This document shows, piece after piece, positions 348 through 30,837 of a DNA stretch of 64,000 bases (the first letter of the stretch is position 1; each line of letters begins with the position of its first letter). The DNA comes from a virus. The position numbers and the translations under genes are program-made. Location: positions 62,001-126,000 of IMG/VR virus record IMGVR_UViG_3300032315_001401; one strand, 5' to 3'. The notes below the pieces were generated by a model. That model made no database searches. It was not told the DNA's origin and saw only the letters and a program-made list of their open reading frames with translations.

Positions 348-1288
348 CGAAACTCACACTCCACCATTATTTCTGTAAGAGCGGCAAGAAGGTTGATTTC
401 CTGATCGGCAACAAACGACCCCTGATACATATACTTTGCAATGATAAGAATTGCTGCAGGAATTGTAGAAGGTGTGAGAGATTCATAGCAAGAGTCATAA
501 AGACGACGCAAAATGAGATTTGCATCATTATCAAGATTTGCTACTACCCATTTACGAACTTCAGCAAAATTCTTATCTTTCATATTTTTGATAAGACCAT
601 TTACTGCAATGTCTGTGAAGGATGCAAGAATTGCTGCGTCAATTTTTCCTCCTGTTGCATACCTTTGACATTCGTTGAGGACTCTTCGAAAATCTGGGAA
701 GTGCTTGGAGATAATTTCAACAAGAACTTTTTGATCATACTCGATCCTTTCCTCATCCAAAATGTTTTGTAGGCGCTTGAAAAAGGATCCTGCCAACTGC
801 GCCTTTTGTTTGCCCTTGATGGTGAAATCAATGACGGCACATCGGGAATGAAGAGGTTCGATGATTTTGTTTTTGTAGTTGCAGGTGAAAATGAATCTGC
901 AGTTGTTATAAAATGTCTCAATATTTGCCCGTAGAAGGAGTTGTACATCTGCGGTCGTGTTGTCACTTTCATCCACAATGATGACTTTGTGTTTAGAAGA
1001 TCCCGTAAGTGAGACGGTCGAAGCGAAGTTCTTTGCTTGGTTCCGTACAGTATCCAAGAAACGCCCTTCGTCGGATCCATTGATGACATAATAGTCTGCC
1101 CCTAACTCATTACACAGTGCTTTTGCAATCGTGGTTTTACCAATACCAGGAGGTCCAGAAAGAAGAAGATTTGGAATCTCCCCTTTTTCCACAAACTCCT
1201 TAAATGTTTTTTTAATTTCATCAGGAAGAATACAGTCCTCAATCACTTGAGGACGATATTTTTCCGTTAGAAGGAATTCACTTGTCAT
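344..1288 (-). CDS. 44: gp44 clamp-loader large subunit (AAA+ ATPase)
   Basis: The 314-residue protein is the ATPase subunit of the phage sliding-clamp loader, which opens the gp45 ring and loads it at primer-template junctions for the replicative polymerase. The clamp-loader AAA+ motifs are all visible: an N-terminal EKYRPQ segment (residues 9-14), Walker A GPPGIGKT (45-52), Walker B IIVDESD (103-109), the sensor-1 region FTCN ending at N137, and the SRC arginine-finger motif (148-150). Length matches T4 gp44 (319). It lies downstream of gp45, from which it is separated by three inserted genes. Its start region lies in a short direct repeat with the 5' end of the preceding homing endonuclease gene, described as a finding. 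Confidence 0.95.
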   Translation of the reverse strand: MTSEFLLTEKYRPQVIEDCILPDEIKKTFKEFVEKGEIPNLLLSGPPGIGKTTIAKALCNELGADYYVINGSDEGRFLDTVRNQAKNFASTVSLTGSSKHKVIIVDESDNTTADVQLLLRANIETFYNNCRFIFTCNYKNKIIEPLHSRCAVIDFTIKGKQKAQLAGSFFKRLQNILDEERIEYDQKVLVEIISKHFPDFRRVLNECQRYATGGKIDAAILASFTDIAVNGLIKNMKDKNFAEVRKWVVANLDNDANLILRRLYDSCYESLTPSTIPAAILIIAKYMYQGSFVADQEINLLAALTEIMVECEFR

Positions 1289-1304
1289 AATTTAATTTAC
1301 ACCC
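1285..1304 (-). repeat. Short direct repeat, copy at gp44 start
   Basis: The plus-strand sequence tcataatttaatttacaccc spans the end of the GIY-YIG gene and the gp44 start codon. It matches 1912-1929 except for a 2-base insertion. The two copies bracket the endonuclease gene. Confidence 0.7.
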
Positions 1305-1915
1305 TTAACTTTCCTTAACTTTTGTTTTGAAACAATGCCAGTAATTTCTTCTTTTGTTTTACCTTTAGATTTAAGATAATCCTCGTAAGTATATCCAGAT
1401 TTAATAAAATTGGATAACTCATCAAGTTTTAATTTATCTTCATTACTCACATAAAAGTATTTTCCTTGCCTAAATCTATTAATTTCGGCAATTATACACC
1501 AATTGGAAAGTGTTGTTGGACTTGTATATCCATAAATCTGCTTTAAATCGGTTGTCTTAAAAATTTTACTATTTAACTTATTATTGCCACAAACTCTTGG
1601 GGACGAATTTATATTAATACAATTTAAGTGTAATTTAAATTTTTGAATTAAATTTGTCTCATAAAAAATCATTTCATTTTCATTAGAAAAAATTTTTAAA
1701 ATGACCTTCTTACCATCACCATTAGTTTTATCTGTATAAGAACCAGTGTATTTTTTATCTTCATCTGGTTTGCAGTCACACTGACGAGACCCTATGTAAA
1801 AATTACCATTTGGAAAGAAAATTACATAAACATAATAATACATTATTTGCTTATATTCTTCCTGAATGTTGTTAATTTCAGTTAAAATTTCATTCAAAAT
1901 TTCAATCTCTTTCAT
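1292..1915 (-). CDS. Free-standing GIY-YIG homing endonuclease
   Basis: A 207-residue GIY-YIG family protein. The diagnostic half-motifs YYVYVI (about residues 27-32) and FYIGSR (39-44) are present, followed by a YTGSY segment and a conserved glutamate in the FYETNLI helix (about residues 85-91). The C-terminal half has no Walker or nuclease motif and probably binds DNA. This class cuts DNA at a specific site and spreads its own gene during mixed infection, like the T4 seg genes. It sits between the glycosylase-like gene and gp44 with 3-base gaps on both sides, so it is not inside a reading frame. It has many AAT and AAA codons and is more AT-rich than gp44. Met25 is an alternative start; I kept the longer form because it begins just after the upstream stop. 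Confidence 0.85.
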   Translation of the reverse strand: MKEIEILNEILTEINNIQEEYKQIMYYYVYVIFFPNGNFYIGSRQCDCKPDEDKKYTGSYTDKTNGDGKKVILKIFSNENEMIFYETNLIQKFKLHLNCININSSPRVCGNNKLNSKIFKTTDLKQIYGYTSPTTLSNWCIIAEINRFRQGKYFYVSNEDKLKLDELSNFIKSGYTYEDYLKSKGKTKEEITGIVSKQKLRKVKGVN

Positions 1916-1929
1916 AATTTAATTCACCC
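1912..1929 (-). repeat. Short direct repeat, copy at endonuclease start
   Basis: The plus-strand sequence tcataatttaattcaccc carries the end of the glycosylase-like gene and the endonuclease start codon. It repeats 1285-1304. Confidence 0.7.
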
Positions 1930-2431
1930 ATTCTGGTTTTCTTTCTGGCATACGAAGATAATTAGATGCAACCCAAGGTTTGGATGCGATATACATCTTG
2001 TAAGCAGTAAAAGTATCAATGCTTGTGTCAAGTTTATACTCATCTGGCATTGCCCGTGCGAATGAAGTTACATTAGTTAATTTACCTTTTGGAAAAAGAT
2101 AGTATGCTTCAATTAGAGTATTCTGGCACGAATGAGTTTTATTATATCTCAATGTGTATTCATCACAAAGATTCAATCCCCACTTAATCAACCAATAAGC
2201 ATTATCAACTGTTTTTGCTGCCCATTGGGTGCAAGGATGATTTCTAAAAGCACCCTTTTCTGTGGCATAAGGATTTCCATCTTTCTTATGAAGTAAACCA
2301 TAATTATGATACCACTTTGATGCCACGATTGATAGCATTTGGCAGCACTCAAGGGGCATTTTCACTACTAATTTGTCTGGAAGTACAATTGCAGATTCTG
2401 CAGGAAATTGATTAGTGACGAATATATTCAT
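1919..2431 (-). CDS. Pyrimidine dimer DNA glycosylase-like protein
   Basis: The 170-residue protein opens with MNIFVTNQFP, followed by a DKLVVKM segment and then CCQMLS. This pattern resembles the Pyr_excise / endonuclease V-related family common in cyanophages and bacteria, which would excise UV-induced pyrimidine dimers. I start it at the ATG at 2431, which overlaps the stop of the preceding gene (TGATG); the longer ATG frame at 2440 adds only three residues and lacks that coupling. Family assignment is from recalled sequence pattern and catalytic residues cannot be confirmed by eye. It is one of three genes separating gp45 from gp44. UV repair would suit a phage of sunlit water. Confidence 0.55.
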   Translation of the reverse strand: MNIFVTNQFPAESAIVLPDKLVVKMPLECCQMLSIVASKWYHNYGLLHKKDGNPYATEKGAFRNHPCTQWAAKTVDNAYWLIKWGLNLCDEYTLRYNKTHSCQNTLIEAYYLFPKGKLTNVTSFARAMPDEYKLDTSIDTFTAYKMYIASKPWVASNYLRMPERKPEWVN

Positions 2432-2841
2432 CAGAAGCAATACTTGTTTACGTAGTATAGCACCCTTTCCGGTTTATCTTCCAGATAGTATGCTTCAGTT
2501 TCATAAACTGGATAAGAATTTTTACTTACCTTAACAGAGCGAACAACATCGTTAAGTTTATATTGATTTAATGTTGCATCAGCAATTTTAAGGGGACCTT
2601 TCTTACACGCTTGGGCAACGTGAACTGCTTCGTGATAAACAGTTTCATTTACATAATGATTTACGGGACTGATACTATTCTTGATGTTATTTGTACAAAC
2701 TACGAATCGAGGACCATCTATCCCACCGAAAATTTCTTTATTCCTACAATATGCAGAGTTTTCTAGAACTCTATAATTTTTCATCATAATTTTACTCACT
2801 AGTTCCTGACTGATGGGCGTCAAATAAAGTAGAAATTCCAT
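2431..2841 (-). CDS. Small zincin-like protein with HEAVH motif
   Basis: A 136-residue protein with the motif YHEAVHVAQ near residue 69, the HExxH zinc-binding signature of zincin metallopeptidases. A downstream YETEAYYLED segment (about residue 112) offers a possible third ligand glutamate. There is no signal peptide or transmembrane helix, so it should act in the host cytoplasm or inside the virion. It starts at an ATG overlapping the gp45 stop (TAATG). The overall family is not known to me, and peptidase activity is an inference from the motif alone. Its place between gp45 and gp44 points to early expression. Confidence 0.7.
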   Translation of the reverse strand: MEFLLYLTPISQELVSKIMMKNYRVLENSAYCRNKEIFGGIDGPRFVVCTNNIKNSISPVNHYVNETVYHEAVHVAQACKKGPLKIADATLNQYKLNDVVRSVKVSKNSYPVYETEAYYLEDKPERVLYYVNKYCF

Positions 2842-3527
2842 TATGCAAAAGTTGAATCGGGTTCCAGAGCAATATAATAGCAGAGATTATACTTGGGATT
2901 CGTGAACTGTGACAAAAGTTTTTGCGACACAACTACGTCATAGGCACCAGGAATAATCTTGATGTTTTCCACCTTGAAGTTGAAAGTAAATTCCTTATCA
3001 GTCTCACCAACCACGATGGAATACTCGTTAGAGGTATCGTTTTTCTTATCACGAACCACCAGACGAATTACACCTGCATCACCCACTGCCGACAGGTCAG
3101 GTAGTTGATAAACTGCCGCTGCCTTTAGAAGTTTTTCCAGAGTTACACTTTCAAGTTGGAAACAAACATCTTTAGAAGGAAGTTGAATTTCTTTTTCTGG
3201 AGGAGAAATAATGACATTCGGGTCGGCAAAGAAATACTTCACACGACGCTTACCTTCACGAATAGTAATATGCGAATCTTCGGCAAAATCAAGGTCTGGG
3301 TCCTGATGAAGACTCAAACCATTCAGAAACTGGTTGAGGTCATAAATCGCAAAGTCACGGGGAAACTCTTCAGTAATATCTGCTTCAGCAAGAATATTTT
3401 TTGCAACGGAAATTGTGCGAAGACGATTACCCTGCTTTACAAGAATGGAGTTGTTAATGCCAGCAAAGTTTTTGAGAAGAGCAAGAGTGTTGTCAGAAAG
3501 TTTCATAGTTTGGGGTTTGAGTTTCAC
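2841..3527 (-). CDS. 45: gp45 sliding clamp (DNA polymerase processivity factor)
   Basis: The 228-residue protein equals T4 gp45 in length (228) and is the trimeric ring that tethers the replicative polymerase; in T4 it also activates late transcription with gp33 and gp55. The N-terminal LKPQTMKLSDNTLALLKNFA segment and the later DAGVIRLVVRDK segment fit the clamp fold. It overlaps the upstream DUF3310 gene by 4 bases. The probable late sigma factor gp55 is also in this window, so the clamp would serve both replication and late transcription here, by analogy with T4. Confidence 0.92.
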   Translation of the reverse strand: MKLKPQTMKLSDNTLALLKNFAGINNSILVKQGNRLRTISVAKNILAEADITEEFPRDFAIYDLNQFLNGLSLHQDPDLDFAEDSHITIREGKRRVKYFFADPNVIISPPEKEIQLPSKDVCFQLESVTLEKLLKAAAVYQLPDLSAVGDAGVIRLVVRDKKNDTSNEYSIVVGETDKEFTFNFKVENIKIIPGAYDVVVSQKLLSQFTNPKYNLCYYIALEPDSTFA

Positions 3528-3901
3528 TTGTTTTCAACTAGATTAAGATGATTAATCAAAAGAATAGTATAGTGCAATACTTTAAACAAGTCAGCACGAG
3601 GAGTTCCTTTTGTGTCATAACGATCAATATACTTGGTCACATTACCTGCACAAAATCCCTCACGGCGATTATGTTTAATTTTATCAAGAGTTTGTTCAGT
3701 TCCACCACCAGTCCTATCGACATAATGCTGACTATAAGTTCCGGAAATATATTCTTCAAGTTGCTTGAGAATTTTGTCTTCGTTATATTTCCAAAAATGA
3801 TTTGAGTTGTCGTTCATAATAGATTCTTTGTCAATTGAAATTTTACCGTCACTATTCAAATACATAGTGAATTCATTCATTGGATAAGGATGCTCGTCCA
3901 T
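3524..3901 (-). CDS. DUF3310-family protein
   Basis: The 125-residue protein carries the DUF3310 pattern in its C-terminal half: EQTLDKI, then GFCAGNVTKYIDRY, KGTPRADLFK and HYTILL. This family is widespread in phages and is often annotated, on weak grounds, as a nucleotide-metabolism or nucleotide-kinase-like protein. The 70 N-terminal residues are unique and acidic. It is the first gene after the sigma-70 promoter at 3937-3965 and so probably heads the early replication transcript with gp45 and gp44. The function is unproven. Confidence 0.75.
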   Translation of the reverse strand: MDEHPYPMNEFTMYLNSDGKISIDKESIMNDNSNHFWKYNEDKILKQLEEYISGTYSQHYVDRTGGGTEQTLDKIKHNRREGFCAGNVTKYIDRYDTKGTPRADLFKVLHYTILLINHLNLVENK

Positions 3902-3902
3902 A

Positions 3903-3933
3903 ATAAAAGAGGGAGGTCATAGTTTTACCTCCC
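3903..3933 (-). terminator. Intrinsic terminator after cobS-like gene
   Basis: In the minus-strand transcript GGGAGGT (3933-3927) pairs with ACCTCCC (3917-3911) around a 9-base loop, followed by CTCTTTTATT. It ends the cobS-like transcript just before the DUF3310 start codon. It lies immediately downstream of the promoter at 3937-3965. Confidence 0.75.
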
Positions 3934-3936
3934 CCA

Positions 3937-3965
3937 ATTATATCAGGATTGGGGAGGATAGTCAA
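3937..3965 (-). promoter_or_regulatory. Sigma-70-type promoter for DUF3310-gp45-gp44 cluster
   Basis: On the minus strand TTGACT (3965-3960) and TATAAT (3942-3937) are 17 bases apart, close to consensus for host sigma-70. The -35 lies inside the 3' end of the cobS-like gene. The expected start near 3930 falls inside the 5' arm of the terminator stem, so transcripts from this promoter would lack part of the hairpin and escape termination. Confidence 0.7.
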
Positions 3966-5073
3966 TGTATTCTGCGGTCAATTCAGGTTGAGAAGGCATT
4001 TTGAAATCAGCATCCACTTTGTCATAAAGTTCCAAGAAAGATTGCTTGGTCTCATCGTCAAAGCGATTCACACACACCTGAATTGCCTTTGCCTTATCTT
4101 GGAAGATACTATAGGCACGGATGATGTGGACCAGACGACGGGTGCTGATGATTTCCTCAATACCACCATCATAGAACGTTTTCCTAATGATATCGGCCCA
4201 ATCAACCAATCGCTTGCAGAAGTCACGGTCTTCCACACCCAAGTCCAGAGCGATGCCTTCCAGAATCTTCTGTTCGGTTGCAGGAGCAGGATATGCTTGC
4301 TCAAAGGTCACAGGGAAACGCTCAAGAAATGCTTCATTAAGAACATTAGTGCCAATGAAACGACCATCATCACTACCCTTACCTTTGGTGTTGGCAGTAG
4401 CAACAACATTAAAACCATCGGCAGGTTTCACGAAACGACCAATCTTCTTCAGGAAGACACCTTTACCTTCCAAAACAGATTGCAGACACAGAATCTTGTT
4501 GGAAGCAAGGTCAATCTCATCCAGAAGCAAAATCGCACCACGCTCCAGTGCCTCAATCACAGGACCATTGTGCCAAGCAGTTTCACCATTCACAAGACGG
4601 AAACCACCAATCAGGTCATCCTCATCAGTCTCAATGGTGATATTAACACGAATCAATTCACGCTTCAGTTGAGCACAAACTTGCTCCACACTGAACGTTT
4701 TACCATTACCCGAAAGACCCGTAATGAACGTAGGATAAAAAAGACGGGACTGAATAATTTTCTTAATATCGTTAAAGTTACCAAACTTGACGAAGGTATC
4801 ATCTTTATCAGGAATAAGGTTTTGTTCAGCGGCAGGAAGCACAGCAGGGGCACTGAAAGAACGCTCAATCTCTTCCACACGCTCTTGAGTCACTTCCAGA
4901 TTCCAACGACCACGAGCAGTCTTGTAATTCTCAAGACGACGAGTCACAGTTTGATAGTTAAGACCACGAGAAGCACAAAAACCTTTCAGGTCACCAGAAG
5001 TGATTTCAGAACCATACAGTTCTTGAATGCTTGCGATAAGTGCTTGATCGTTCACAGAAGACTTGCGAGACAT
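3943..5073 (-). CDS. cobS: CobS-like AAA+ ATPase
   Basis: The 376-residue MoxR/CobS-type ATPase has an N-terminal helix-turn-helix-like region (about residues 20-55), Walker A GLSGNGKT (119-126), Walker B ILLLDEID (181-188) and a sensor segment VVATANT. CobS is the AAA+ motor subunit of aerobic cobaltochelatase (vitamin B12 synthesis), and this gene is a recurrent cyanophage accessory gene. It directly follows a CobT-like gene, but no CobN-like catalytic subunit is in the window, so if it acts in B12 synthesis it must use host CobN. A general MoxR-VWA chaperone role is the alternative. It has its own upstream terminator and a downstream terminator. Confidence 0.85.
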   Translation of the reverse strand: MSRKSSVNDQALIASIQELYGSEITSGDLKGFCASRGLNYQTVTRRLENYKTARGRWNLEVTQERVEEIERSFSAPAVLPAAEQNLIPDKDDTFVKFGNFNDIKKIIQSRLFYPTFITGLSGNGKTFSVEQVCAQLKRELIRVNITIETDEDDLIGGFRLVNGETAWHNGPVIEALERGAILLLDEIDLASNKILCLQSVLEGKGVFLKKIGRFVKPADGFNVVATANTKGKGSDDGRFIGTNVLNEAFLERFPVTFEQAYPAPATEQKILEGIALDLGVEDRDFCKRLVDWADIIRKTFYDGGIEEIISTRRLVHIIRAYSIFQDKAKAIQVCVNRFDDETKQSFLELYDKVDADFKMPSQPELTAEYIDYPPQS

Positions 5074-5116
5074 AATGTAGTTAGGTGGTTTTGTTTAACT
5101 GAAGTTATTATATAAG

Positions 5117-5142
5117 AAAAAAGGGGGCAGTGGAGTGCCCCC
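5117..5142 (-). terminator. Intrinsic terminator between CobT-like and CobS-like genes
   Basis: GGGGGCA pairs with TGCCCCC around a 6-base loop, with six Ts following in the minus-strand transcript. A TATAAT box (plus strand attata at 5107-5112) follows, but I see no matching -35. Confidence 0.85.
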
Positions 5143-5163
5143 TGTGACAGTTTGGAAATTGGT

Positions 5164-7305
5164 TCAAGCAATGAGTTCCACAAACTCTCCAAGAATACGC
5201 TTGTTCATTTTTTTGGATTTCAAACTCTTGACAAAAGCGTTTTTAATCTGCGATTTAGAAGCATCTTCAGAAACAGCAAATTCCGAATCTTGCGAAAGTG
5301 CATTTGCAGAAAGTCCAAAGTAAGTATGATACCCAGACTTTTTAATCGAAAATACTTTTTCTTTCCTCCAAGAACCCATCACCTTATCATAATCCGGACC
5401 ATAATAACCACAGTAACGACGAATGAAAGCACCTGCATCGTGAGATTCGAGCACACGAATACCAATAAAGTTAATATCGGCAAACTTGTCCCTCAAATTA
5501 CGAAGGAAAACATCAGTCATTTGATGCCATTCACATTCCAAAGAATAAGTGTTTCCAGTTTTACGGTCACGCAAGAATGAATTAGTGCCAATATGAGAAG
5601 TGCCCAAATAAGGACCATCTTCCCAATGACGATGCACTTCACGATGATACTTAATGCCACACGATTCACCATCGGTCAAAATCACACACTGAACTTTTTG
5701 AAGTTTGTTTTCCTTTTGAAATTTGGGAAGAATCTGATGAAGGGCAATCATTGATTCATTGAGAGGAGTTCCGGAAAGACTCATACCGAGAGGAGTGGGA
5801 TATGACTGATAGAAATGCCGACCAAAAGAAGTTGCAATACGGAAAATATTCTTCATTTGATTTTCTAGAGTCTTACCATTCACTTTACTGGTGAGAAGAT
5901 TCATCATAGAAAACCACTCACCAACTTGAATCAGTCCATCTTTCTTTTGATAGGCAAGTTCGCGCATATTTGCCCTACCATTTTGGTCATAAGTCACCAA
6001 AGGATAATCGGTTGTGAAAGCATAAACATCAAAAGGAATTGCAACTTTCTTACAGAACCAAACAAGGTTAAAGAGTTGCTTGACCGTATCCAACATCACA
6101 TCACCCATCGAACCAGACCAGTCCAGAACGAATACCAGACCGTGATTCTTACCGGTAGCAAGAGTAGTGACCTTTTTGAAGAGGTCCTCATTGTATTTGT
6201 AAGTATGAAGTTTGGAGCAATCCAAAACACCAGTGCGAGCAGTTGTGGCACGGGCATAGGAATCTGCTGCCTTACGACACTCAAACTCTTTCACAAGATA
6301 ATTGACTTCCTTTTGTGCAGAACGCTTGAATTCTACAAACTGCTTATCAACTTCACCAAAAACATCTTCGTGCTTATAATCACGATCTTGAATAAAAGCA
6401 TCCCAATTTTCTTTACATTTATCATGAATCTCTGCGTTGGAAACAATAATCTTTTTCAGGTCAAGTTGAGGAATTTCCAAATACACATTCTCATATCCAT
6501 CGTTATTGACAAGATCTTTAAGTGCCTCTTCCAGAGACTCCATCGTTTTCACTTCAGGGTCTTCATTCTTTTCACCACCCAATTTTTGAGTGGAATCACC
6601 CATTTCTGGGGTGGTTTCACCAGAAGCAGAACCACCAGATTCGGGTTGGTCATTTTCACCCTGCTGCTGGTCACTGAAATCTGAAGCAGGTTGATTATCT
6701 GCACCACTGTCCTGCGATTCCAGATTATCAAGATTAATTTTAACTTCTTCTTGTTGCTTTTGCTTACAATACTTATAAAGTGCTTCTGATGCAATCAACA
6801 CATCAGCAAAAGTTTCAACATCGGCAATCAGGTTGATAATATCAGTCTCTTCACCACGCTCAATCGGCACATCAACAAAGTTTCCAATCTTAAACCAAAT
6901 GTTTGCACGGTCGGCAAGATTATAAGTTTCCAGATTATCATCTTTGATTTGGAAAAAGTCATCATCGGCAAGTTCCTTATAACCATTGAAGAAGGTCTTT
7001 GCCAGACCAGCATAACGACGCTTCATCAATTTCTCAATGCGAGCATCCTCTACCACATTCACAAACTGTGGAGGAACTTTTACATTTTTAGTCCAGTCCT
7101 CATCAGGGGTATAGAGAGCGTGACCCACCTCGTGACCCACCAGAAGGTCATAGACTGTGTTGCTTGCCTTCTCCCACATCGGCAGAGTCAGCACACGAGT
7201 ATGGACGTTAAAGCAGGCAGTCTCTACCTTCTTGTGCTCAACCACAAGGTCTTCGGTGGCAAGAAGTTTAGCAAGTTGGGACTTGATTTCGTGACGGACA
7301 GACAT
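5164..7305 (-). CDS. cobT: CobT-like protein: HExxH plus von Willebrand A domain
   Basis: A 713-residue protein that pairs with the CobS-like ATPase. Counting from the ATG at 7305, an N-terminal HEVGH (58-62) with a following VVEDARIE segment (about 84-91) forms a zincin-like signature. An acidic low-complexity linker follows (about 195-255). The C-terminal von Willebrand A domain has the metal-ion MIDAS motif DWSGSM (395-400). CobT, the chelatase partner of CobS, has this acidic linker plus VWA layout. A longer frame can be read from a TTG at 7335, but that start falls in the terminator T-tract, so I prefer the ATG. The HEVGH motif suggests either a relic or a real metallopeptidase function. 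No CobN gene is seen. Confidence 0.75.
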   Translation of the reverse strand: MSVRHEIKSQLAKLLATEDLVVEHKKVETACFNVHTRVLTLPMWEKASNTVYDLLVGHEVGHALYTPDEDWTKNVKVPPQFVNVVEDARIEKLMKRRYAGLAKTFFNGYKELADDDFFQIKDDNLETYNLADRANIWFKIGNFVDVPIERGEETDIINLIADVETFADVLIASEALYKYCKQKQQEEVKINLDNLESQDSGADNQPASDFSDQQQGENDQPESGGSASGETTPEMGDSTQKLGGEKNEDPEVKTMESLEEALKDLVNNDGYENVYLEIPQLDLKKIIVSNAEIHDKCKENWDAFIQDRDYKHEDVFGEVDKQFVEFKRSAQKEVNYLVKEFECRKAADSYARATTARTGVLDCSKLHTYKYNEDLFKKVTTLATGKNHGLVFVLDWSGSMGDVMLDTVKQLFNLVWFCKKVAIPFDVYAFTTDYPLVTYDQNGRANMRELAYQKKDGLIQVGEWFSMMNLLTSKVNGKTLENQMKNIFRIATSFGRHFYQSYPTPLGMSLSGTPLNESMIALHQILPKFQKENKLQKVQCVILTDGESCGIKYHREVHRHWEDGPYLGTSHIGTNSFLRDRKTGNTYSLECEWHQMTDVFLRNLRDKFADINFIGIRVLESHDAGAFIRRYCGYYGPDYDKVMGSWRKEKVFSIKKSGYHTYFGLSANALSQDSEFAVSEDASKSQIKNAFVKSLKSKKMNKRILGEFVELIA

Positions 7306-24859: not shown

Positions 24860-26074
24860 TCACCTATAATCCCACATATAAGATCTGTCTCCATATTCAT
24901 CCACATTCCAGACTTCCATAGATTCTAGAGGGGCATTATTTGCTCCTACTAACCACCTGTCCCCAGTTTCTTGCTCTACAAATACATCCATATCCTCCAA
25001 TCCATCAGAAATAAATCCAAAAGGAGACATATCTTGCTCTATTTGATTTTTTTGCTCTTCATATATTCTCTTACGAACATCATTATCCGTCATTTCTTTA
25101 AAATAATCTTGAGCAACCAACCAAGAAAAAATAACTAGACACATCGCAAGGTCATCGTTACAACCTTCTTCTGCCTCAAAGGAGTTGTGTTTTTGAGAAA
25201 ATGTTGTAAGTTCGCTAATAATATCATAATCTACTGTTAGAAGTTTATCATCTTCAAGTAGAGTCTTGAGGTTGGAGCATCCTAATTTTTTAACAGCAGC
25301 AGTCATTCTCACACCAAGTTGTGATTTCTTTCCACTAAAACCAGAACCAACAATCTGACCTGCACGACCTCTCATTGCACACATCAAAACATTATCATAT
25401 TCAAGATCAAAGTGTAAGATACTTGCAACTTGATCTCCAATATCATTGACCTCAATCAGTAACCAAGCATCATTGTATCCTTTTGCCACTTCGTGAATAA
25501 TGCTGGGAAACAGCATTGGTTTAATTTCATTGTTTTTATATTTTCCTACAATTTTATACGGGAAATTAGTAATATCAAAAACAACAAATGCTGAATAATC
25601 ATTACCTAATCCACGAGCAACATCAACGGTAATTAAATAATTATGCTCTTCTTTTGGATGCTCATAAATGTCTAAACCAGCATTTCTCTTGATAGGGTCA
25701 TCATATGCAAGATTGCGAAGTTTTGTTGCGTTAATAAGAGTATTGACCGAACCTAAAAATTCGCAATTGTGTGATATTATATTATTTGAATAATATAGAT
25801 TATCCTCACCAACATCAAGTAAGTCATAAAGATATATTCCTTCCTCTACTATTTCATTATATACTACTTTTTTTCCCTGCAATAAATCATCAACCCTAAT
25901 TGTTGACGCTTTAATTTTTTCTTTTCCGAAAGAATGATTATCGGAGCACTTTATTTCCGACCCATCATCAAATATTATCCAATGATAGAAAGGTTTATAA
26001 ACTTTTTGAATTCCTGAAAAAGATTTAAATCCATAAGGAGTTTTTACTTCAATATTTTTATTAAGTTTAAACAT
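24860..26074 (-). CDS. 17: Split intein C-half fused to gp17 nuclease domain
   Basis: This 404-residue gene encodes two fused parts. Residues 1-103 are the C-half of a split intein, and residues 104-404 are the second part of the terminase large subunit. The terminase part starts CEFLGSVNTLI, the direct continuation of the sequence that ends the first gene. It contains the nuclease domain, with likely metal-binding acids D151 (TVDVARG), E208 (LLIEVND) and D307/D308 (GCNDDLAM), matching the T4 gp17 acidic triad by order. The gene starts with an ATG overlapping the endonuclease stop by 8 bases. Without splicing it would yield a nuclease domain with an intein leader and no ATPase. Confidence 0.93.
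   Translation of the reverse strand: MFKLNKNIEVKTPYGFKSFSGIQKVYKPFYHWIIFDDGSEIKCSDNHSFGKEKIKASTIRVDDLLQGKKVVYNEIVEEGIYLYDLLDVGEDNLYYSNNIISHNCEFLGSVNTLINATKLRNLAYDDPIKRNAGLDIYEHPKEEHNYLITVDVARGLGNDYSAFVVFDITNFPYKIVGKYKNNEIKPMLFPSIIHEVAKGYNDAWLLIEVNDIGDQVASILHFDLEYDNVLMCAMRGRAGQIVGSGFSGKKSQLGVRMTAAVKKLGCSNLKTLLEDDKLLTVDYDIISELTTFSQKHNSFEAEEGCNDDLAMCLVIFSWLVAQDYFKEMTDNDVRKRIYEEQKNQIEQDMSPFGFISDGLEDMDVFVEQETGDRWLVGANNAPLESMEVWNVDEYGDRSYMWDYR
25766..26074 (-). other. Intein C-half (IntC), 103 residues
   Basis: Residues 1-103 of the downstream gene. Block B appears as IKCSDNHSFG with S44 and H47 in place of the usual TxxH. Block F appears as YLYDLLDVGED near residue 81, and block G as NNIISHN with penultimate H102 and terminal N103, followed by Cys+1 (codon 25763-25765). 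The pattern strongly resembles AceL-TerL IntC as I recall it (GIQKV, IIFDD, SHN). There is no embedded endonuclease domain. Confidence 0.92.
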
Positions 26075-26636
26075 TTTTCCAACACTCGTTTAAAACAATC
26101 CTTTTTAATCCTTGAGGTGTTAAATTATATTTTTTGGCGTATTCTTTACAAAATGCCTGAACATATGACATTTTTTTACCATTTTTCATAATCATTCCAA
26201 CATTTTGTAAATTTGGTTTTTCATTATATAGTTTTCTTATTGCTCTTATCTCATCATCATTAATTTTTCTACTAAAAACTCTACCTTTTCTAGAGTTACT
26301 CATTTTCTCTACAGTTTCTTCCGAAAAACAATTTTGCATACCTTTATTCCAAGGAATATTACCTTTCTTAACCCCTCCAATTCCTTTTCTTTCATAATTA
26401 TCAAAACCTTCCCCACCAGTAGACTTGTTCCATCCATTTTTGAAAGTATCAAATTTTTCTATATAAAAAATTTCTTTTTCTTTTGCTTTTTCTGCAACAT
26501 CTATTTGTTCACTTATTTCAAAAGTATGTGGTGGTTTATTTCTTTTATGTTCTCTTTTTCTAGAATCTAAATTTTGGGTTTGTCCAACGTATTTAACTTT
26601 ACCGTCAGAATTTTTAAGAAAGTAAATATAATACAT
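26067..26636 (-). CDS. GIY-YIG homing endonuclease inside the fractured gp17 locus
   Basis: A 189-residue GIY-YIG protein: MYYIYFLKNS (1-10) and VKYVGQTQNL (14-23) are the two half-motifs, followed by R26 and an EKEIFYIEKF helix with the expected glutamate. A segment GVKKGNIPWNKGMQ plus EETVEKMSNSRKG matches the NUMOD3 DNA-binding repeat, and the last 50 residues (YVQAFCKEYAKKYNLTPQGL) look helix-turn-helix-like. It is a separate frame with its own start between the two halves of the split intein gene. It probably cuts intein-free gp17 alleles and spreads the whole cassette, replacing the endonuclease domain missing from the intein. It overlaps the IntC gene by 8 bases. Confidence 0.92.
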   Translation of the reverse strand: MYYIYFLKNSDGKVKYVGQTQNLDSRKREHKRNKPPHTFEISEQIDVAEKAKEKEIFYIEKFDTFKNGWNKSTGGEGFDNYERKGIGGVKKGNIPWNKGMQNCFSEETVEKMSNSRKGRVFSRKINDDEIRAIRKLYNEKPNLQNVGMIMKNGKKMSYVQAFCKEYAKKYNLTPQGLKRIVLNECWKNV

Positions 26637-26645
26637 TTTTATTAT

Positions 26646-26653
26646 TATTTATA
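26646..26653 (-). promoter_or_regulatory. Late promoter match TATAAATA inside the gp17 break
   Basis: A perfect TATAAATA on the minus strand, 9 bases before the endonuclease ATG. With T4 spacing the transcript would start about 4 bases before that ATG, so it may serve the downstream IntC-nuclease gene more than the endonuclease. The surroundings are very AT-rich, so chance is possible. Confidence 0.5.
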
Positions 26654-26664
26654 ATCCAAAAAAC

Positions 26665-27546
26665 TCACAATCGTTTATATAAGTCTTTCATAGAAATTTT
26701 TTGAGTATTTCCATCACTATCTTGAATTTCAACTAAAGTATCCCCACTTAAACATTCAAACTCAACCTTAAACTGCTGCTCACTCGTGTTTGCAATCGTC
26801 TGTGCCTTCCACGCTTCGTCTCTACCGGGCACTTCAGACCAATGAACATCTGTAGGAACATATTCATTTTTGCCCCTTTCAGCGTCGTGCCACATACGGT
26901 AGAAGTGATTCATACCGCGAGGAGTGGAAACAATAATTACCTTTGTGCTTTGACCAGAAGAAATAGTAGGATAAACAGACGCAAAGAAGTCGTCAGCAAT
27001 GTGATTTGGAATAAACGCAAATTCGTCCAAAAAGATGACATTATATGACCCTCCTCGAACAGCAGATGAAGAAGTAGAGTTTGATGAAATTTTTGATCCA
27101 TTTTCTAACTCTAGAGAACCTTTGTTCCAAGATATAATACCCTGTTGCATCCACTTGGGCAAATTCTCATAAGCAAGTTGCAATCTTCCGAGAAGGTCTC
27201 TGGCAGTGGATGCTTTGTTTGCTAGAATTGCTATATTCACATTATCGTTAAATACCGCATAATGTAATAAGTATGAGACGCAAGTTGTAGATTTACCCGT
27301 CTGGCGGGGCATCTTGCAGATATTAAATCTATTCTCGTGGAAGTTCTTTACAAGTTTCTCCTGAAACGGATACATCTTAAATGGAACAAGACCGTGGTCC
27401 AAAGAAACAATCTTAATATAATTCTTTGCAAAATATACAGGGTCTTCCTTACACTTTAAGAACTCAATAATTTGTTCTTCAGTGAATTGAATTTGTGTAT
27501 TCGCTTTTTTTAGGTTGGGATTACCAAGATAAATGTTATCACTCAT
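26665..27546 (-). CDS. 17: gp17 ATPase domain fused to split intein N-half
   Basis: The 293-residue gene encodes the packaging ATPase half of the terminase large subunit (1-264) and then a 29-residue intein N-half before a stop. Walker A is MPRQTGKST (79-87), Walker B VIFLDEFAF (170-178, with D174 and E175), and a TPRGMN coupling segment follows. The extein ends with SEQQFKVEFE, after which the intein begins with Cys1 (CLSGDTLVEI). Joined to the second gene, the mature product would be 565 residues, normal for cyanophage gp17 (T4: 610). The break lies between the ATPase and nuclease domains. Confidence 0.95.
   Translation of the reverse strand: MSDNIYLGNPNLKKANTQIQFTEEQIIEFLKCKEDPVYFAKNYIKIVSLDHGLVPFKMYPFQEKLVKNFHENRFNICKMPRQTGKSTTCVSYLLHYAVFNDNVNIAILANKASTARDLLGRLQLAYENLPKWMQQGIISWNKGSLELENGSKISSNSTSSSAVRGGSYNVIFLDEFAFIPNHIADDFFASVYPTISSGQSTKVIIVSTPRGMNHFYRMWHDAERGKNEYVPTDVHWSEVPGRDEAWKAQTIANTSEQQFKVEFECLSGDTLVEIQDSDGNTQKISMKDLYKRL
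26668..26754 (-). other. Intein N-half (IntN), 29 residues
   Basis: The last 29 codons of the ATPase gene: Cys1, block A CLSGDTLVEI, an 8-residue turn and then SMKDLYKRL before the stop. The DLYKRL ending matches the AceL-TerL IntN as I recall it (25 residues). This is far shorter than the ~90-100 residues of canonical split-intein N-halves. Confidence 0.92.
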
Positions 27547-27555
27547 GACTTTTAA

Positions 27556-30500
27556 TCAAACCCCACCATATGCAAATATCCAAACACCACCAACAGCAGT
27601 TGAAGTTGAGAATAGTTCAATCATCATACTTGCTTGAGCAGCACCACCACCTCCAAGTTGATAAACATTACTACCATTACTACACTGACTTGCAGTTACT
27701 CCAGTAAATGTAAAAGTATTTGCACCAGTATGAGGAGTAATAAAAATCCTAATTCCTCTATTTGCTGTAAAATTAGTTAGTGTAACTGTTCTATTTCCAT
27801 TAGCACTTGGTTGCCAGAATATTACATCAGGACCAGTAAAATCTACTGTAAGTGTGCTTGCCTGTGTAGTAGAAGTAGAGATGAAATATGATGGTATTGC
27901 ATTAACTGTAACTTGCCCTGTGGAATTGGAAATAGTAACACCAGTACCAGCAACAATAGAAGTTACAATACCAGTTAGATTTGTTCCAGAACCACTATAA
28001 GAAGTTGCAGTAACTACACCAGAGAATGTTCCACCATCAGTACATACAAGTTTTGTCGTAGTTACAACTCCAACACTCATTCCAAGTGATGAAGTATTTC
28101 CATAACCTAATACTGAATTTAGGTTTTGTGCTCCTGTAATTGTAACAATACCAATTCCATTCACAGGTGCAATTGTAATTCCACTTCCAGCAATGATTTG
28201 ATTAACAATCGTTGGTTTGTTGAGAATAGATGCAACACCAACTGTTGAAGTCCAATCACTATTGACTTGAGCAGTTCCATTAATCGTAACTCTTCCTGTT
28301 GAACCTGATACTGTAATTCCACCAGTACCAGCAACAATAGAAGTTACAATACCAGTTAGATTTGCACCATTTCCAGTATAAGAAGTTGCGGATACAACTC
28401 CAACATTAATTCCAAGTGCCGAAGTATTTCCGTTAGTTAATACCGAATTGAGGTTCTGTGTTCCAGTTGCATTAATTGTGACTGTACCAATTCCATTCAC
28501 AGGAGATAGTGATACACCAGTTCCTCCAATAATTTGATTAACAATATTTGGTTTGTTTAGAATTGCAGTAACACCAACAGTGGCATTCCAATCAGAATTA
28601 AGTTGTGTTCTTGGTCCTGGAATTTGGTCGTAATGAGTTCCATTGTGAATTAATAAGTCCCCATCTTGAAGTGATAAAGGTCCATTTCCAAAATTAGTTG
28701 TACCAACTCCAACTACTGTATATTGCCAACCTGCTTCTCCAGTTGCATCTGTGATTGGTGGAATATTGGTAACAACATTATATGCTCCTTTGTAGATAAC
28801 AGCACCAGTAACAGTTGGAGGGGTCTCCCAAGACATTACATAATTACCAGCAACATTAGTAACCTTCAGGAACTTATCTGCAGTTCCTGCGGTTTGTGGT
28901 GGGAAATATGTTAATCTTGAATTATCATAGAAAGTAATACCAGTAGTGCTACCTGTGCCAGTAAATGATAACCCATTATTATTAATACTTGCAGATAATG
29001 TTTTAGTTGCTGTACCAAGAGGTGCAGTATAGAAATTTATTTGTGACCCATAAGCAGTATTTGTATAATTTTCCCTAGCAACAAACTCAATGGCAGTTGG
29101 AGCGGCAGTTTGAGGAATAGTAGTTGTACCCCAACCTACTGCAGTAATTCTAAACATACTATCTCCAGACTGCAGAGCAGTAGGAATTCCAGCAGTTCCT
29201 CTACCAGAACGACCTGTTAATTGTGCGTGAGCACCAACACCAAATCCATCAATCGTAACTCTTGCGGGAGCATCTTGATTGCTAGTGAGGTGTAATAATC
29301 CTCCAGAAAATAAAATTGGTTGATAATCACCGTTTGGAGAACCAATAATACTCACTCCACCAATATCTCCCGCAGGAATAGTTGGGGGATAATATTGAGT
29401 GCGTCCTGTGCGGTCTGTATAAAATGCTGTTCTATTTACAGCATTTTCAACTCTAACAGAACGATTGAAAATAACATCCGCAGTTGCACCAAGAGAACCA
29501 ATATAAACATCACGAGTACTATCTTTAATCTGCAAGGTATTATCTCTCAATACCCATTCACCAACTTCTAAACCAGCACCACCTTTGATGTAGAAATTAC
29601 CTGCTTTTGCTCCAAGTGCTTGGTCGTTTCCTAATGTTTCGTCCTGTACATAAATCGTTCCAGTTCCAAACCAGACTTCTTTAAATCTTCTGGATGGAGA
29701 ACCCAAAGACCATTCATTAGTCGTGTATGGGAGAATGTCCGAGTGATTAACAATATTACCACCAGGACCTGCATTCAAAGTAATATCAACATTATTTCCA
29801 GTAAGTATTGACATCCCCGCATTGACGGTTGCACGAGCAAAAGTAATTATCTCATCTGTTATTGGAAGAGGTGCTCCTACTGGAAAATTAATATCAGTAA
29901 TAATAACCTTATTATATGCACCAGTACCAATACCAATAATTTTACTTCCAACTGGAATTGCTGCACCAGCAATCACATCATCTATCTGAAGTGTTGGTGT
30001 GGGAACTGCTTGAAGTTCATAAACTGCATATGGAACACCAGTAATACCATAGGTTAAACCATAACTTCCAATACCTAAATTTGCATAATTTCCGTGTTCA
30101 AGAACTACATTTAGATTTTCATTACCAATGTTAGCAACAATTGAAGAAATACCAGAAATAACAGAACCAACTGGAATGTTTACTGCAGCAACACTAATTT
30201 CATTTGTGGTTGTATTTCCACGGTCGGTGACTGTATCCAAAGTATCTGCATCCAAATCACCAACTAATACAAATTCTGCTTTGTTTGTTGTTGAATTCCA
30301 GGACAGAACTTTACCATCATAAGCAGCAGAATTCGTTGCAAGTCCAACAACATCATCCAGGTATCTAAATTTTGTTTCACCACCACCACCTAATGTGGAG
30401 AGTTGTTGTTGGATGCGAGAAAGAAAGAGTTTATAATGCTTTTCTAAATCTTCAAGTGTTGCGAACTTTTGGTCTAATGGAGTTAATGTGTCTTTTTGAA

Positions 30501-30837
30501 CTTTAACATCTGATGGTTCGGAAAGAAGTCCTAATGACCTTTCAATCAGTTCATTTTTTGGTTCTTCAAGTTCTTCTTGAAGTTCTTCTACTACCTCAAC
30601 AATTTCCTCAATTACTTCTTCATTAATTGGTTCTATTTCATTAGAAGATAAGAAGTCCTCAAATACTTTGAGTGCTTTATGTCCTTTTTTATTTTTTATT
30701 TTACTCTTTGTTTTAAGAATAGAAACTTCTTCAAAAACAGAATCTAGTCCTAAGTCACCAACTAAAGATTCATATTCTTCCTTTTTTTGTTTCTTTTCTT
30801 GTGCTACTAATTTAAAAAGTTCTGACAGTTCATCCAT
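27556..30837 (-). CDS. Large tail-fibre-like structural protein, 1093 aa
   Basis: Residues 1-150 are Glu/Lys-rich and helical (coiled coil candidate starting MDELSELFKLVAQEKKQ), ending in a GGGG hinge near residue 151. The remaining ~940 residues are Gly/Thr/Asn/Val-rich beta repeats with GTGTIYVQD-like strands, as in phage fibres. A SDW..TVG..ILNKP module occurs twice, and a TSIVAGTG module at least twice, near the C-terminus. Such proteins with a coiled-coil N-terminus and repetitive C-terminus are known among cyanophage virion proteins. The position between gp16 and gp17 is not a T4 tail-fibre position. A role in host attachment is inference. Confidence 0.8.
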   Translation of the reverse strand: MDELSELFKLVAQEKKQKKEEYESLVGDLGLDSVFEEVSILKTKSKIKNKKGHKALKVFEDFLSSNEIEPINEEVIEEIVEVVEELQEELEEPKNELIERSLGLLSEPSDVKVQKDTLTPLDQKFATLEDLEKHYKLFLSRIQQQLSTLGGGGETKFRYLDDVVGLATNSAAYDGKVLSWNSTTNKAEFVLVGDLDADTLDTVTDRGNTTTNEISVAAVNIPVGSVISGISSIVANIGNENLNVVLEHGNYANLGIGSYGLTYGITGVPYAVYELQAVPTPTLQIDDVIAGAAIPVGSKIIGIGTGAYNKVIITDINFPVGAPLPITDEIITFARATVNAGMSILTGNNVDITLNAGPGGNIVNHSDILPYTTNEWSLGSPSRRFKEVWFGTGTIYVQDETLGNDQALGAKAGNFYIKGGAGLEVGEWVLRDNTLQIKDSTRDVYIGSLGATADVIFNRSVRVENAVNRTAFYTDRTGRTQYYPPTIPAGDIGGVSIIGSPNGDYQPILFSGGLLHLTSNQDAPARVTIDGFGVGAHAQLTGRSGRGTAGIPTALQSGDSMFRITAVGWGTTTIPQTAAPTAIEFVARENYTNTAYGSQINFYTAPLGTATKTLSASINNNGLSFTGTGSTTGITFYDNSRLTYFPPQTAGTADKFLKVTNVAGNYVMSWETPPTVTGAVIYKGAYNVVTNIPPITDATGEAGWQYTVVGVGTTNFGNGPLSLQDGDLLIHNGTHYDQIPGPRTQLNSDWNATVGVTAILNKPNIVNQIIGGTGVSLSPVNGIGTVTINATGTQNLNSVLTNGNTSALGINVGVVSATSYTGNGANLTGIVTSIVAGTGGITVSGSTGRVTINGTAQVNSDWTSTVGVASILNKPTIVNQIIAGSGITIAPVNGIGIVTITGAQNLNSVLGYGNTSSLGMSVGVVTTTKLVCTDGGTFSGVVTATSYSGSGTNLTGIVTSIVAGTGVTISNSTGQVTVNAIPSYFISTSTTQASTLTVDFTGPDVIFWQPSANGNRTVTLTNFTANRGIRIFITPHTGANTFTFTGVTASQCSNGSNVYQLGGGGAAQASMMIELFSTSTAVGGVWIFAYGGV
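27895..28605 (-). repeat. Imperfect tandem repeats in the fibre-like gene
   Basis: Two anchors recur: a ccaatcMSWattRasttg-type segment (about 28250 and 28587) encoding NSDW..TVGV, and the segment beginning ccagtaccagcaacaatag (27941 and 28322) encoding TSIVAGTG. The spacings are about 336 and 381 bases, so the repeat is imperfect with indels. Confidence 0.65.

What the first reader, a model, noticed from the sequence alone, without database searches (positions are those of the whole stretch)
26067..26653. Homing endonuclease nested in the intein break, with a late promoter
The GIY-YIG/NUMOD3 gene occupies the space between intein halves as its own frame, overlapping the IntC start by 8 bases. 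A perfect TATAAATA lies 9 bases before it. So the intein lost any internal endonuclease and a separate one does the homing. The promoter would leave only about 4 leader bases for the endonuclease, so it may mainly supply the nuclease half of gp17 in the late phase. Unequal dosage of the two halves is possible because the ATPase-IntN gene is upstream of this promoter.
Basis: partly seen in the sequence, partly recalled or inferred. Interest (0 to 1): 0.65.

Follow-up and report, generated by a model that had tools for sequence, protein, structure and literature searches.

The report
Split-intein endonuclease with homing-site operator
A cyanobacterial virus carries a DNA-cutting gene wedged between the two halves of its packaging-motor gene, and a conserved copy of the DNA site it probably recognises sits on its own promoter, which suggests that this mobile element switches itself off by binding there.

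Summary
On the minus strand a GIY-YIG endonuclease gene (26067-26636) lies between gp17-ATPase-IntN and IntC-gp17-nuclease, overlaps IntC by 8 bases, and has TATAAATA 9 bases upstream. The split intein belongs to the known AceL/GOS-TerL ("Cat") class.

About 65 distinct marine viral loci share this arrangement. IntN-HEG-IntC moves as one cassette (97% DNA identity between loci whose flanks are 71-73%).

New here: the 16 bases just before the late promoter, TGTGAGTTTTTTGGAT, copy the C-extein half of the intein insertion site (CEFLGS codons). They usually match intein-free gp17 at 11-15 of 16 positions. The copy is non-coding from position 6 on. There it varies only where CEFLG codons vary, while synonymous sites in the cassettes are saturated. 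All 65 HEG-bearing loci keep it; four HEG-less, still-split alleles lost copy and promoter. This matches I-TevI autorepression: best read as a late-expressed, self-repressing homing endonuclease.

Not supported: the promoter mainly supplying the gp17 nuclease half. Doubtful: "lost its internal endonuclease", since Vibrio phages carry a homologous HEG fused in frame to IntN. Binding, cleavage and repression are untested.

The parts
26755..27546 (-). gp17 (TerL) N-extein: ATPase half, ends ...QQFKVEFE
   Evidence: ORF 26665-27546; Pfam Terminase_6N E=7.7e-20
26668..26754 (-). IntN, 29 aa CLSGDTLVEIQDSDGNTQKISMKDLYKRL; last codon TTG, stop TGA 26665-26667
   Evidence: short IntN as in AceL/GOS-TerL (25-37 aa; PMC11766414, PMC13014065)
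26654..26669 (-). Proposed HEG operator: TGTGAGTTTTTTGGAT, a copy of the C-extein half of the homing site (CEFLGS codons); shares TG with the last IntN codon and TGA with the IntN stop
   Evidence: pattern occurs only twice in the 188-kb genome
26646..26653 (-). T4-type late promoter TATAAATA
   Evidence: cyanophage late promoter NATAAATA per PMC2984593
26637..26645 (-). Spacer from promoter to HEG ATG; predicted 5' RNA end about 26640 (inference from T4 geometry), no Shine-Dalgarno, unstructured
26067..26636 (-). Free-standing GIY-YIG homing endonuclease, 189 aa; invariant IYF/YVG, R26/R28/H30, E55, N70; C-terminal helical domain (about 125-182)
26067..26074 (-). 8-base overlap ATGTTTAA of HEG stop and IntC start
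25766..26074 (-). IntC, 103 aa, ends ...NNIISHN
   Evidence: engineered CatC intein, PDB 6dsl, E=2.2e-57
25750..25765 (-). C-extein half of the intein insertion (homing) site, TGCGAATTTTTAGGTT (C E F L G S)
24860..25765 (-). gp17 (TerL) C-extein: RNase H-like nuclease half
   Evidence: Terminase_6C E=2.3e-11

Best explanation
This is a mobile cassette made of an atypically split TerL intein and a free-standing GIY-YIG homing endonuclease. It inserts precisely between EFE and CEF of gp17. The endonuclease is expressed late from TATAAATA. It most likely recognises the C-extein half of the uninterrupted gp17 site (TGYGARTTYYTNGGNTC) and cuts on or near the N-extein side; repair then copies IntN-HEG-IntC into the break. 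The same half-site is duplicated right against the late promoter, without the N-extein half. The enzyme would therefore bind there without efficient cutting and repress its own transcription, as I-TevI does in phage T4. Gp17 is rebuilt by protein trans-splicing. Shown here: anatomy, mobility, and a conserved, constrained half-site copy on the promoter. Inferred: binding, cut position, repression, and trans-splicing in this phage.
For: Mobility: cassette DNA 97% identical between the window and L083, with flanks 71% and 73% and sharp edges at the insertion point; 99% vs 79% and 76% for L084/L098; cassette distances correlate with extein distances (r=0.31-0.42) less than the exteins do with each other (0.57). 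HEG intact in 55 of 56 distinct alleles. Half-site copy: in 57 intein-free gp17 genes the insertion point is a top-scoring match to the 16-mer in 55, uniquely so in 51, over both strands of the gene; S-SRM01 matches 15/16, next best 12/16. The degenerate pattern occurs twice in the 188-kb genome, at the two predicted places, control 0. Constraint: in columns 6-16, free of coding and octamer duty, exactly the columns variable in real gp17 genes vary (6, 9, 10, 12, 15), and 7, 8, 11, 13, 14, 16 are invariant in both sets; chance 1 in 462. Four-fold sites of the same HEGs are saturated (14/35, 15/32 identical). The motif stays with the promoter when shifted 6 nt from the IntN stop (L112, L126, L147). 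Leu-ending IntNs use TTG 24/24, against 12% of Leu codons nearby. Loci not used for discovery: half-site 7/7. Other late promoters of the window lack it. I-TevI precedent: operator overlapping the late promoter, 15/20 identical to the homing site, bound equally and cut about 100 times less (PMC2988022).
Against: No binding, cleavage or transcript data exist. The loci are related, so counts are not independent. Own-locus C-exteins match the copy no better than other loci's (p=0.15), so fine coevolution is not seen, though that also argues against gene conversion. HEG-less alleles may have lost copy, promoter and HEG in one deletion, which weakens that test. No I-TevI-like RNA hairpin is conserved (mean z=+0.5). 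The C-terminal, presumed DNA-binding domain has no confident structural match.
Confidence: 0.74

Rival explanations
1. The half-site copy is an inert scar: a duplicated piece of gp17 left when the HEG first invaded the intein, with no present function.
For: It starts exactly at the insertion point and reads CEFxGL in one frame, as a duplicated extein would.
Against: It is non-coding from position 6 on, yet invariant at the columns that are invariant in gp17, in cassettes whose HEGs are only 54-64% identical to the window's and saturated at four-fold sites. Terminal Leu codon TTG 24/24 also shows constraint. A scar may explain its origin but not its upkeep.
Confidence: 0.12
2. The late promoter exists mainly to supply the IntC-gp17 nuclease half late in infection.
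For: The promoter lies upstream of IntC-gp17; no NATAAATA within 150 nt upstream of gp17-ATPase-IntN.
Against: Four HEG-less split alleles (L012, L106, L140, L493) lack any TATAAATA before IntC. AATAAATA lies shortly upstream of the preceding gene, so the ATPase half can be late-transcribed too.
Confidence: 0.08
3. The copy is a DNA-processing site: HEG nicks or cuts its own cassette there to release donor ends or drive re-homing, rather than repressing transcription.
For: The same sequence evidence fits any HEG-binding role; low-rate self-cutting by some HEGs has been suggested (PMC10448857).
Against: Cutting between IntN and HEG would break gp17 and the cassette; the N-extein side, where the cut is expected, is missing; exact placement on the promoter is best explained by repression.
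Confidence: 0.08
4. Chance or compositional similarity in an AT-rich genome.
For: The 16-mer matches the window's own site at only 12/16, a score reached or passed elsewhere in the window.
Against: Degenerate pattern unique to the two places in 188 kb; a top-scoring match at the insertion point in 55 of 57 intein-free genes; matching pattern of variable columns.
Confidence: 0.02

Closest known systems
AceL-TerL / GOS-TerL atypically split inteins and the engineered consensus 'Cat' intein
   Same: Host gene TerL, short IntN split after the first helix, IntC about 103-104 aa; IntC matches CatC (PDB 6dsl) at E=2.2e-57
   Different: Those works concern the splicing parts; the late promoter and the half-site copy are not described in the papers I could read
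I-TevI of phage T4 (td intron) and its autorepressor operator
   Same: GIY-YIG enzyme; TATAAATA overlapped or abutted by a homing-site-like sequence lacking the cleavage part (PMC2988022)
   Different: Here the element is a split intein, not a group I intron; no SD-sequestering hairpin; binding and repression untested
'Fractured genes' of Dassa et al. 2009 (split inteins with a free-standing HEG)
   Same: Split host gene, split intein, HEG between the halves
   Different: From memory, the new HEG family of that paper is Vsr-like EDxHD, not GIY-YIG; paper not held here
Vibrio phages VP-1 and K469 TerL
   Same: Intein at the same EFE|C site and split point; homologous GIY-YIG enzyme (hhalign E=1.5e-6 for K469; tblastn 5e-8 for VP-1)
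   Different: HEG fused in frame behind IntN; no TATAAATA and no half-site copy
Aeh1 mobE in nrdA and ICP1 terL intron with adjacent T5orf172 HEG
   Same: HEG splitting, or next to, an essential phage gene, moving with it
   Different: mobE leaves nrdA in pieces without an intein (PMC2988022; absence of an intein from memory); ICP1 uses RNA splicing (PMC10448857)

Membership tests
Atypically split TerL intein (AceL/GOS/Cat) | Sequence homology of IntC | tested here: met
   CatC, PDB 6dsl, E=2.2e-57
Atypically split TerL intein (AceL/GOS/Cat) | Cys1, block-B His, terminal His-Asn and Cys+1 | tested here: met
   C1 in IntN; SDNH and SHN|C in the IntC ORF
Atypically split TerL intein (AceL/GOS/Cat) | Short IntN (25-37 aa) split after first helix | tested here: met
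   29 aa ending DLYKRL, then stop; range from PMC11766414, PMC13014065
Atypically split TerL intein (AceL/GOS/Cat) | Protein trans-splicing | not testable with these tools
   -
GIY-YIG homing endonuclease | GIY-YIG domain with catalytic residues | tested here: met
   PF01541 E=3.4e-8; Y5, Y16, G18, R26, R28, H30, E55, N70 invariant in 24 sequences; top Foldseek hits UvrC and I-TevI domains, weak E
   Pfam NUMOD3 E=0.18, below cut-off
GIY-YIG homing endonuclease | Mobility of the element between alleles | tested here: met
   Cassette 97% vs flanks 71/73%
GIY-YIG homing endonuclease | Site-specific cleavage of the intein-free allele | not testable with these tools
   -
I-TevI-type autorepressor | Homing-site-like sequence on the HEG's own late promoter | tested here: met
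I-TevI-type autorepressor | Cleavage-side part absent from the operator | tested here: inconclusive
   IntN codons, not N-extein, precede the copy; but where the enzyme cuts is only inferred
I-TevI-type autorepressor | Hairpin sequestering the RBS in read-through RNA (a companion control of I-TevI, not of autorepression itself) | tested here: not met
   mean z=+0.5 over 34 loci
I-TevI-type autorepressor | Equal binding to operator and homing site; repression | not testable with these tools
   -
Fractured gene (Dassa 2009) | Host gene and intein split with free-standing HEG between | tested here: met
T4-type late promoter | (N/T)ATAAATA upstream of genes on the coding strand | tested here: met
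   consensus from PMC2984593

The most novel reading that the evidence does not exclude
A split-intein-linked homing endonuclease autoregulates through a duplicated, codon-degenerate copy of its protein-coding homing half-site on a late promoter. The I-TevI autorepression design would thus have arisen again in an intein element, making the enzyme's DNA specificity readable from the non-coding copy (tolerant at wobble positions, strict elsewhere).
Probability: 0.68. Interest if true: 0.72.

Novelty: new variant of a known kind. Interest (0 to 1): 0.62.

Why it matters
Autorepression by a homing-site-like operator has been shown for I-TevI and only proposed for two other intron endonucleases (PMC2988022). 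Finding the same design in a split-intein cassette would suggest that it is a general solution to the problem of carrying a nuclease aimed at an essential gene. The non-coding copy, kept across about 65 natural cassettes, is also a natural selection experiment: it shows which bases the enzyme reads and which it ignores. HEG-less but still-split alleles suggest that the split intein, once fixed, outlives its nuclease.

Tried and rejected
RNA hairpin over the HEG start as in I-TevI/MobE: the window alone looked folded (z=-2.4), but no conserved structure exists over 34 loci. Programmed frameshift or readthrough from IntN into HEG: spacer lengths are not frame-conserved. Concerted gene conversion between copy and own C-extein: not seen (p=0.15). 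Late-promoter context as a general explanation for the upstream GGAT: the other six TATAAATA sites lack it. The same half-site trick in VP-1, K469 and coliphage CE1: no copy at their HEG starts. A weak second match of the cassette in the own genome (L299) is in unrelated genes, chance. CHASE9 hit (E=0.008) is below its cut-off and judged spurious.

Full report
WHAT IS THERE. The window is a 64-kb piece of a 188-kb virus record related to T4-like cyanophages; the closest named phage over this region is Synechococcus phage S-SRM01 at 82.6% DNA identity, whose gp17 is uninterrupted. On the minus strand gp17 (TerL) is in two genes. The first (26665-27546) is the ATPase half followed by a 29-aa IntN and a stop. 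The second (24860-26074) is a 103-aa IntC followed by the nuclease half. Between them is a separate 189-aa ORF (26067-26636) that overlaps IntC by 8 bases; TATAAATA sits 9 bases before its ATG. The ORF is a GIY-YIG enzyme (Pfam E=3.4e-8, phrog homing endonuclease E=2e-19). The NUMOD3 label is below its cut-off.

THE INTEIN IS A KNOWN KIND. IntC matches the engineered consensus intein CatC, PDB 6dsl, at E=2.2e-57. Cat was built from the naturally split GOS-TerL and AceL-TerL inteins, which have IntN of 25-37 residues (PMC11766414, PMC13014065). All splicing residues are present. The general arrangement, a gene broken by a split intein with a nuclease gene in the break, was named 'fractured genes' by Dassa et al. 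2009 (cited in several held papers; the paper itself is not held).

THE CASSETTE IS MOBILE AND WIDESPREAD. Scans of IMG/VR gave 61 distinct junctions, the window included (58 with the HEG, 3 without), and later 8 more (7 with, 1 without). The HEG reading frame is intact in 55 of 56 distinct alleles, with the catalytic residues invariant. IntN, HEG and IntC travel together: the window and L083 are 97% identical in the cassette but 71% and 73% in the gp17 flanks, with the change exactly at the insertion point; L084 and L098 show 99% against 79% and 76%. This is what homing into EFE|CEF predicts.

THE LATE PROMOTER IS REAL. The octamer count is at chance, but all seven copies are on the minus strand and six lie just before an ATG; NATAAATA is 18 to 1 in favour of that strand. 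NATAAATA is the published cyanophage late promoter (PMC2984593). At the HEG, TATAAATA is kept in 62 of 65 loci (exceptions: L129 CATAAATA, L155 TAAAAATA, L416 TATAGATA), while the spacer to the ATG varies in length and sequence.

A HOMING-SITE COPY SITS ON THE PROMOTER. The 16 bases directly before TATAAATA are TGTGAGTTTTTTGGAT. Real gp17 genes begin the C-extein with TGYGARTTYYTNGGNTC (Cys-Glu-Phe-Leu-Gly-Ser). In 57 intein-free gp17 genes the insertion point is a top-scoring match to the 16-mer in 55, uniquely so in 51, over both strands; matches are mostly 11 to 15 of 16, and S-SRM01 has 15. In the 188-kb genome the degenerate pattern occurs only at the insertion site and at this promoter. 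In IMG/VR every hit carrying the TGTRA start lies at this locus (60 directly, 3 at contig ends with gp17 and the HEG start or the IntN end; a capped scan).

THE COPY IS UNDER SELECTION. From position 6 to 16 it codes for nothing and is not part of the octamer. In 58 loci the only variable columns there are 6, 9, 10, 12 and 15, exactly the columns that vary in 117 real gp17 target sequences, and the six others are invariant in both sets (chance of the same partition 1 in 462). The HEGs of these cassettes are as little as 54% identical to the window's and their four-fold sites are saturated, so shared descent alone does not explain the constancy. Where the copy lies 6 nt further from the IntN stop (L112, L126, L147) it stays with the promoter. 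Where IntN ends in Leu the codon is TTG in 24 of 24, against 12% of Leu codons nearby, which fits the need for the first TG of the copy. In seven loci not used to find the motif it is present in all. The copy does not track each locus's own C-extein (p=0.15), so gene conversion is not the reason. Other late promoters in the window lack it.

HOW IT MOST LIKELY WORKS. In T4, I-TevI binds its homing site and, with equal affinity, an operator on its own late promoter that is 15/20 identical to that site but lacks the cleavage part; it is cut about 100-fold less and binding represses transcription (PMC2988022). The anatomy here is the same in kind: half of the homing site, without the N-extein half, abutting the late promoter of a GIY-YIG enzyme. 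I therefore propose late expression, binding to the C-extein half-site, cutting on the N-extein side of uninterrupted gp17, and self-repression through the copy. Binding, cutting and repression are inferred. Unlike I-TevI, no SD-sequestering hairpin is conserved.

WHAT THE PROMOTER IS NOT. Four alleles have lost the HEG while gp17 stays split (L012, L106, L140, L493). All lack the promoter and the intact copy. In L012 and L140 IntC starts right after the IntN stop behind an AGG; L106 keeps a remnant of the HEG tail; L493 uses a GTG start. So the nuclease half does not need this promoter. One deletion could remove HEG, promoter and copy together, so this shows dispensability rather than separate loss. 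AATAAATA lies shortly upstream of the gene before gp17, so the ATPase half can be transcribed late as well.

ORIGIN OF THE HEG. Vibrio phages VP-1 and K469 have an intein at the same gp17 site, split at the same point, with a homologous GIY-YIG enzyme fused in frame behind IntN and neither promoter nor copy. The same endonuclease family thus exists as an in-frame part of the intein half elsewhere, and the free-standing state with its own promoter may be derived. Direction is not established.

LIMITS. All evidence is comparative sequence analysis; loci are related and counts are not independent events; I could not read Dassa 2009 or the AceL-TerL paper, so whether a GIY-YIG gene at this spot has been mentioned there is unknown to me.

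Noticed in passing
L211 (Vibrio phage VP-1, MH363700.1) 837-4179: TerL appears to hold two inteins: a contiguous one in the Walker A motif (QSGK|C...SHN|TTV) and a second, split one at EFE|C with an in-frame GIY-YIG enzyme.
   Followed up: partly
L212 (Escherichia phage CE1, ON229909.1) 1507-4359: A Tequatrovirus gp17 is in three overlapping genes at a different site (DE|CAFI), with a probable Vsr-like (RSSWE) nuclease between the split-intein halves; similar records include HY03 and SG1.
   Followed up: partly
L213 (Campylobacter phage CP81) 2995-4323: IntC plus the C-terminal TerL half stand alone; no IntN half in the fetched neighbourhood, so the two halves seem to lie far apart in the genome.
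   Followed up: no
L214 (Nitratidesulfovibrio phage SRB7757) 2263-4338: TerL with a contiguous mini-intein without nuclease at the DE|CAFI site.
   Followed up: no
L217 (S-SRM01, MW015081.1) 2001-5962: Terminase and tail-sheath annotations appear swapped: gp17 protein matches fall in the gene labelled tail sheath.
   Followed up: yes
L119 HEG; L155 and L416 promoters: Possible decay stages: an in-frame stop in the HEG of L119; L155 (TAAAAATA) and L416 (TATAGATA) keep HEG and half-site copy but have a damaged late promoter.
   Followed up: no
window 27556-30837: A 1093-aa gene just upstream of gp17 with fibre-like repeats and AATAAATA shortly upstream of its start; that may be the late promoter for gp17-ATPase-IntN.
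   Followed up: no
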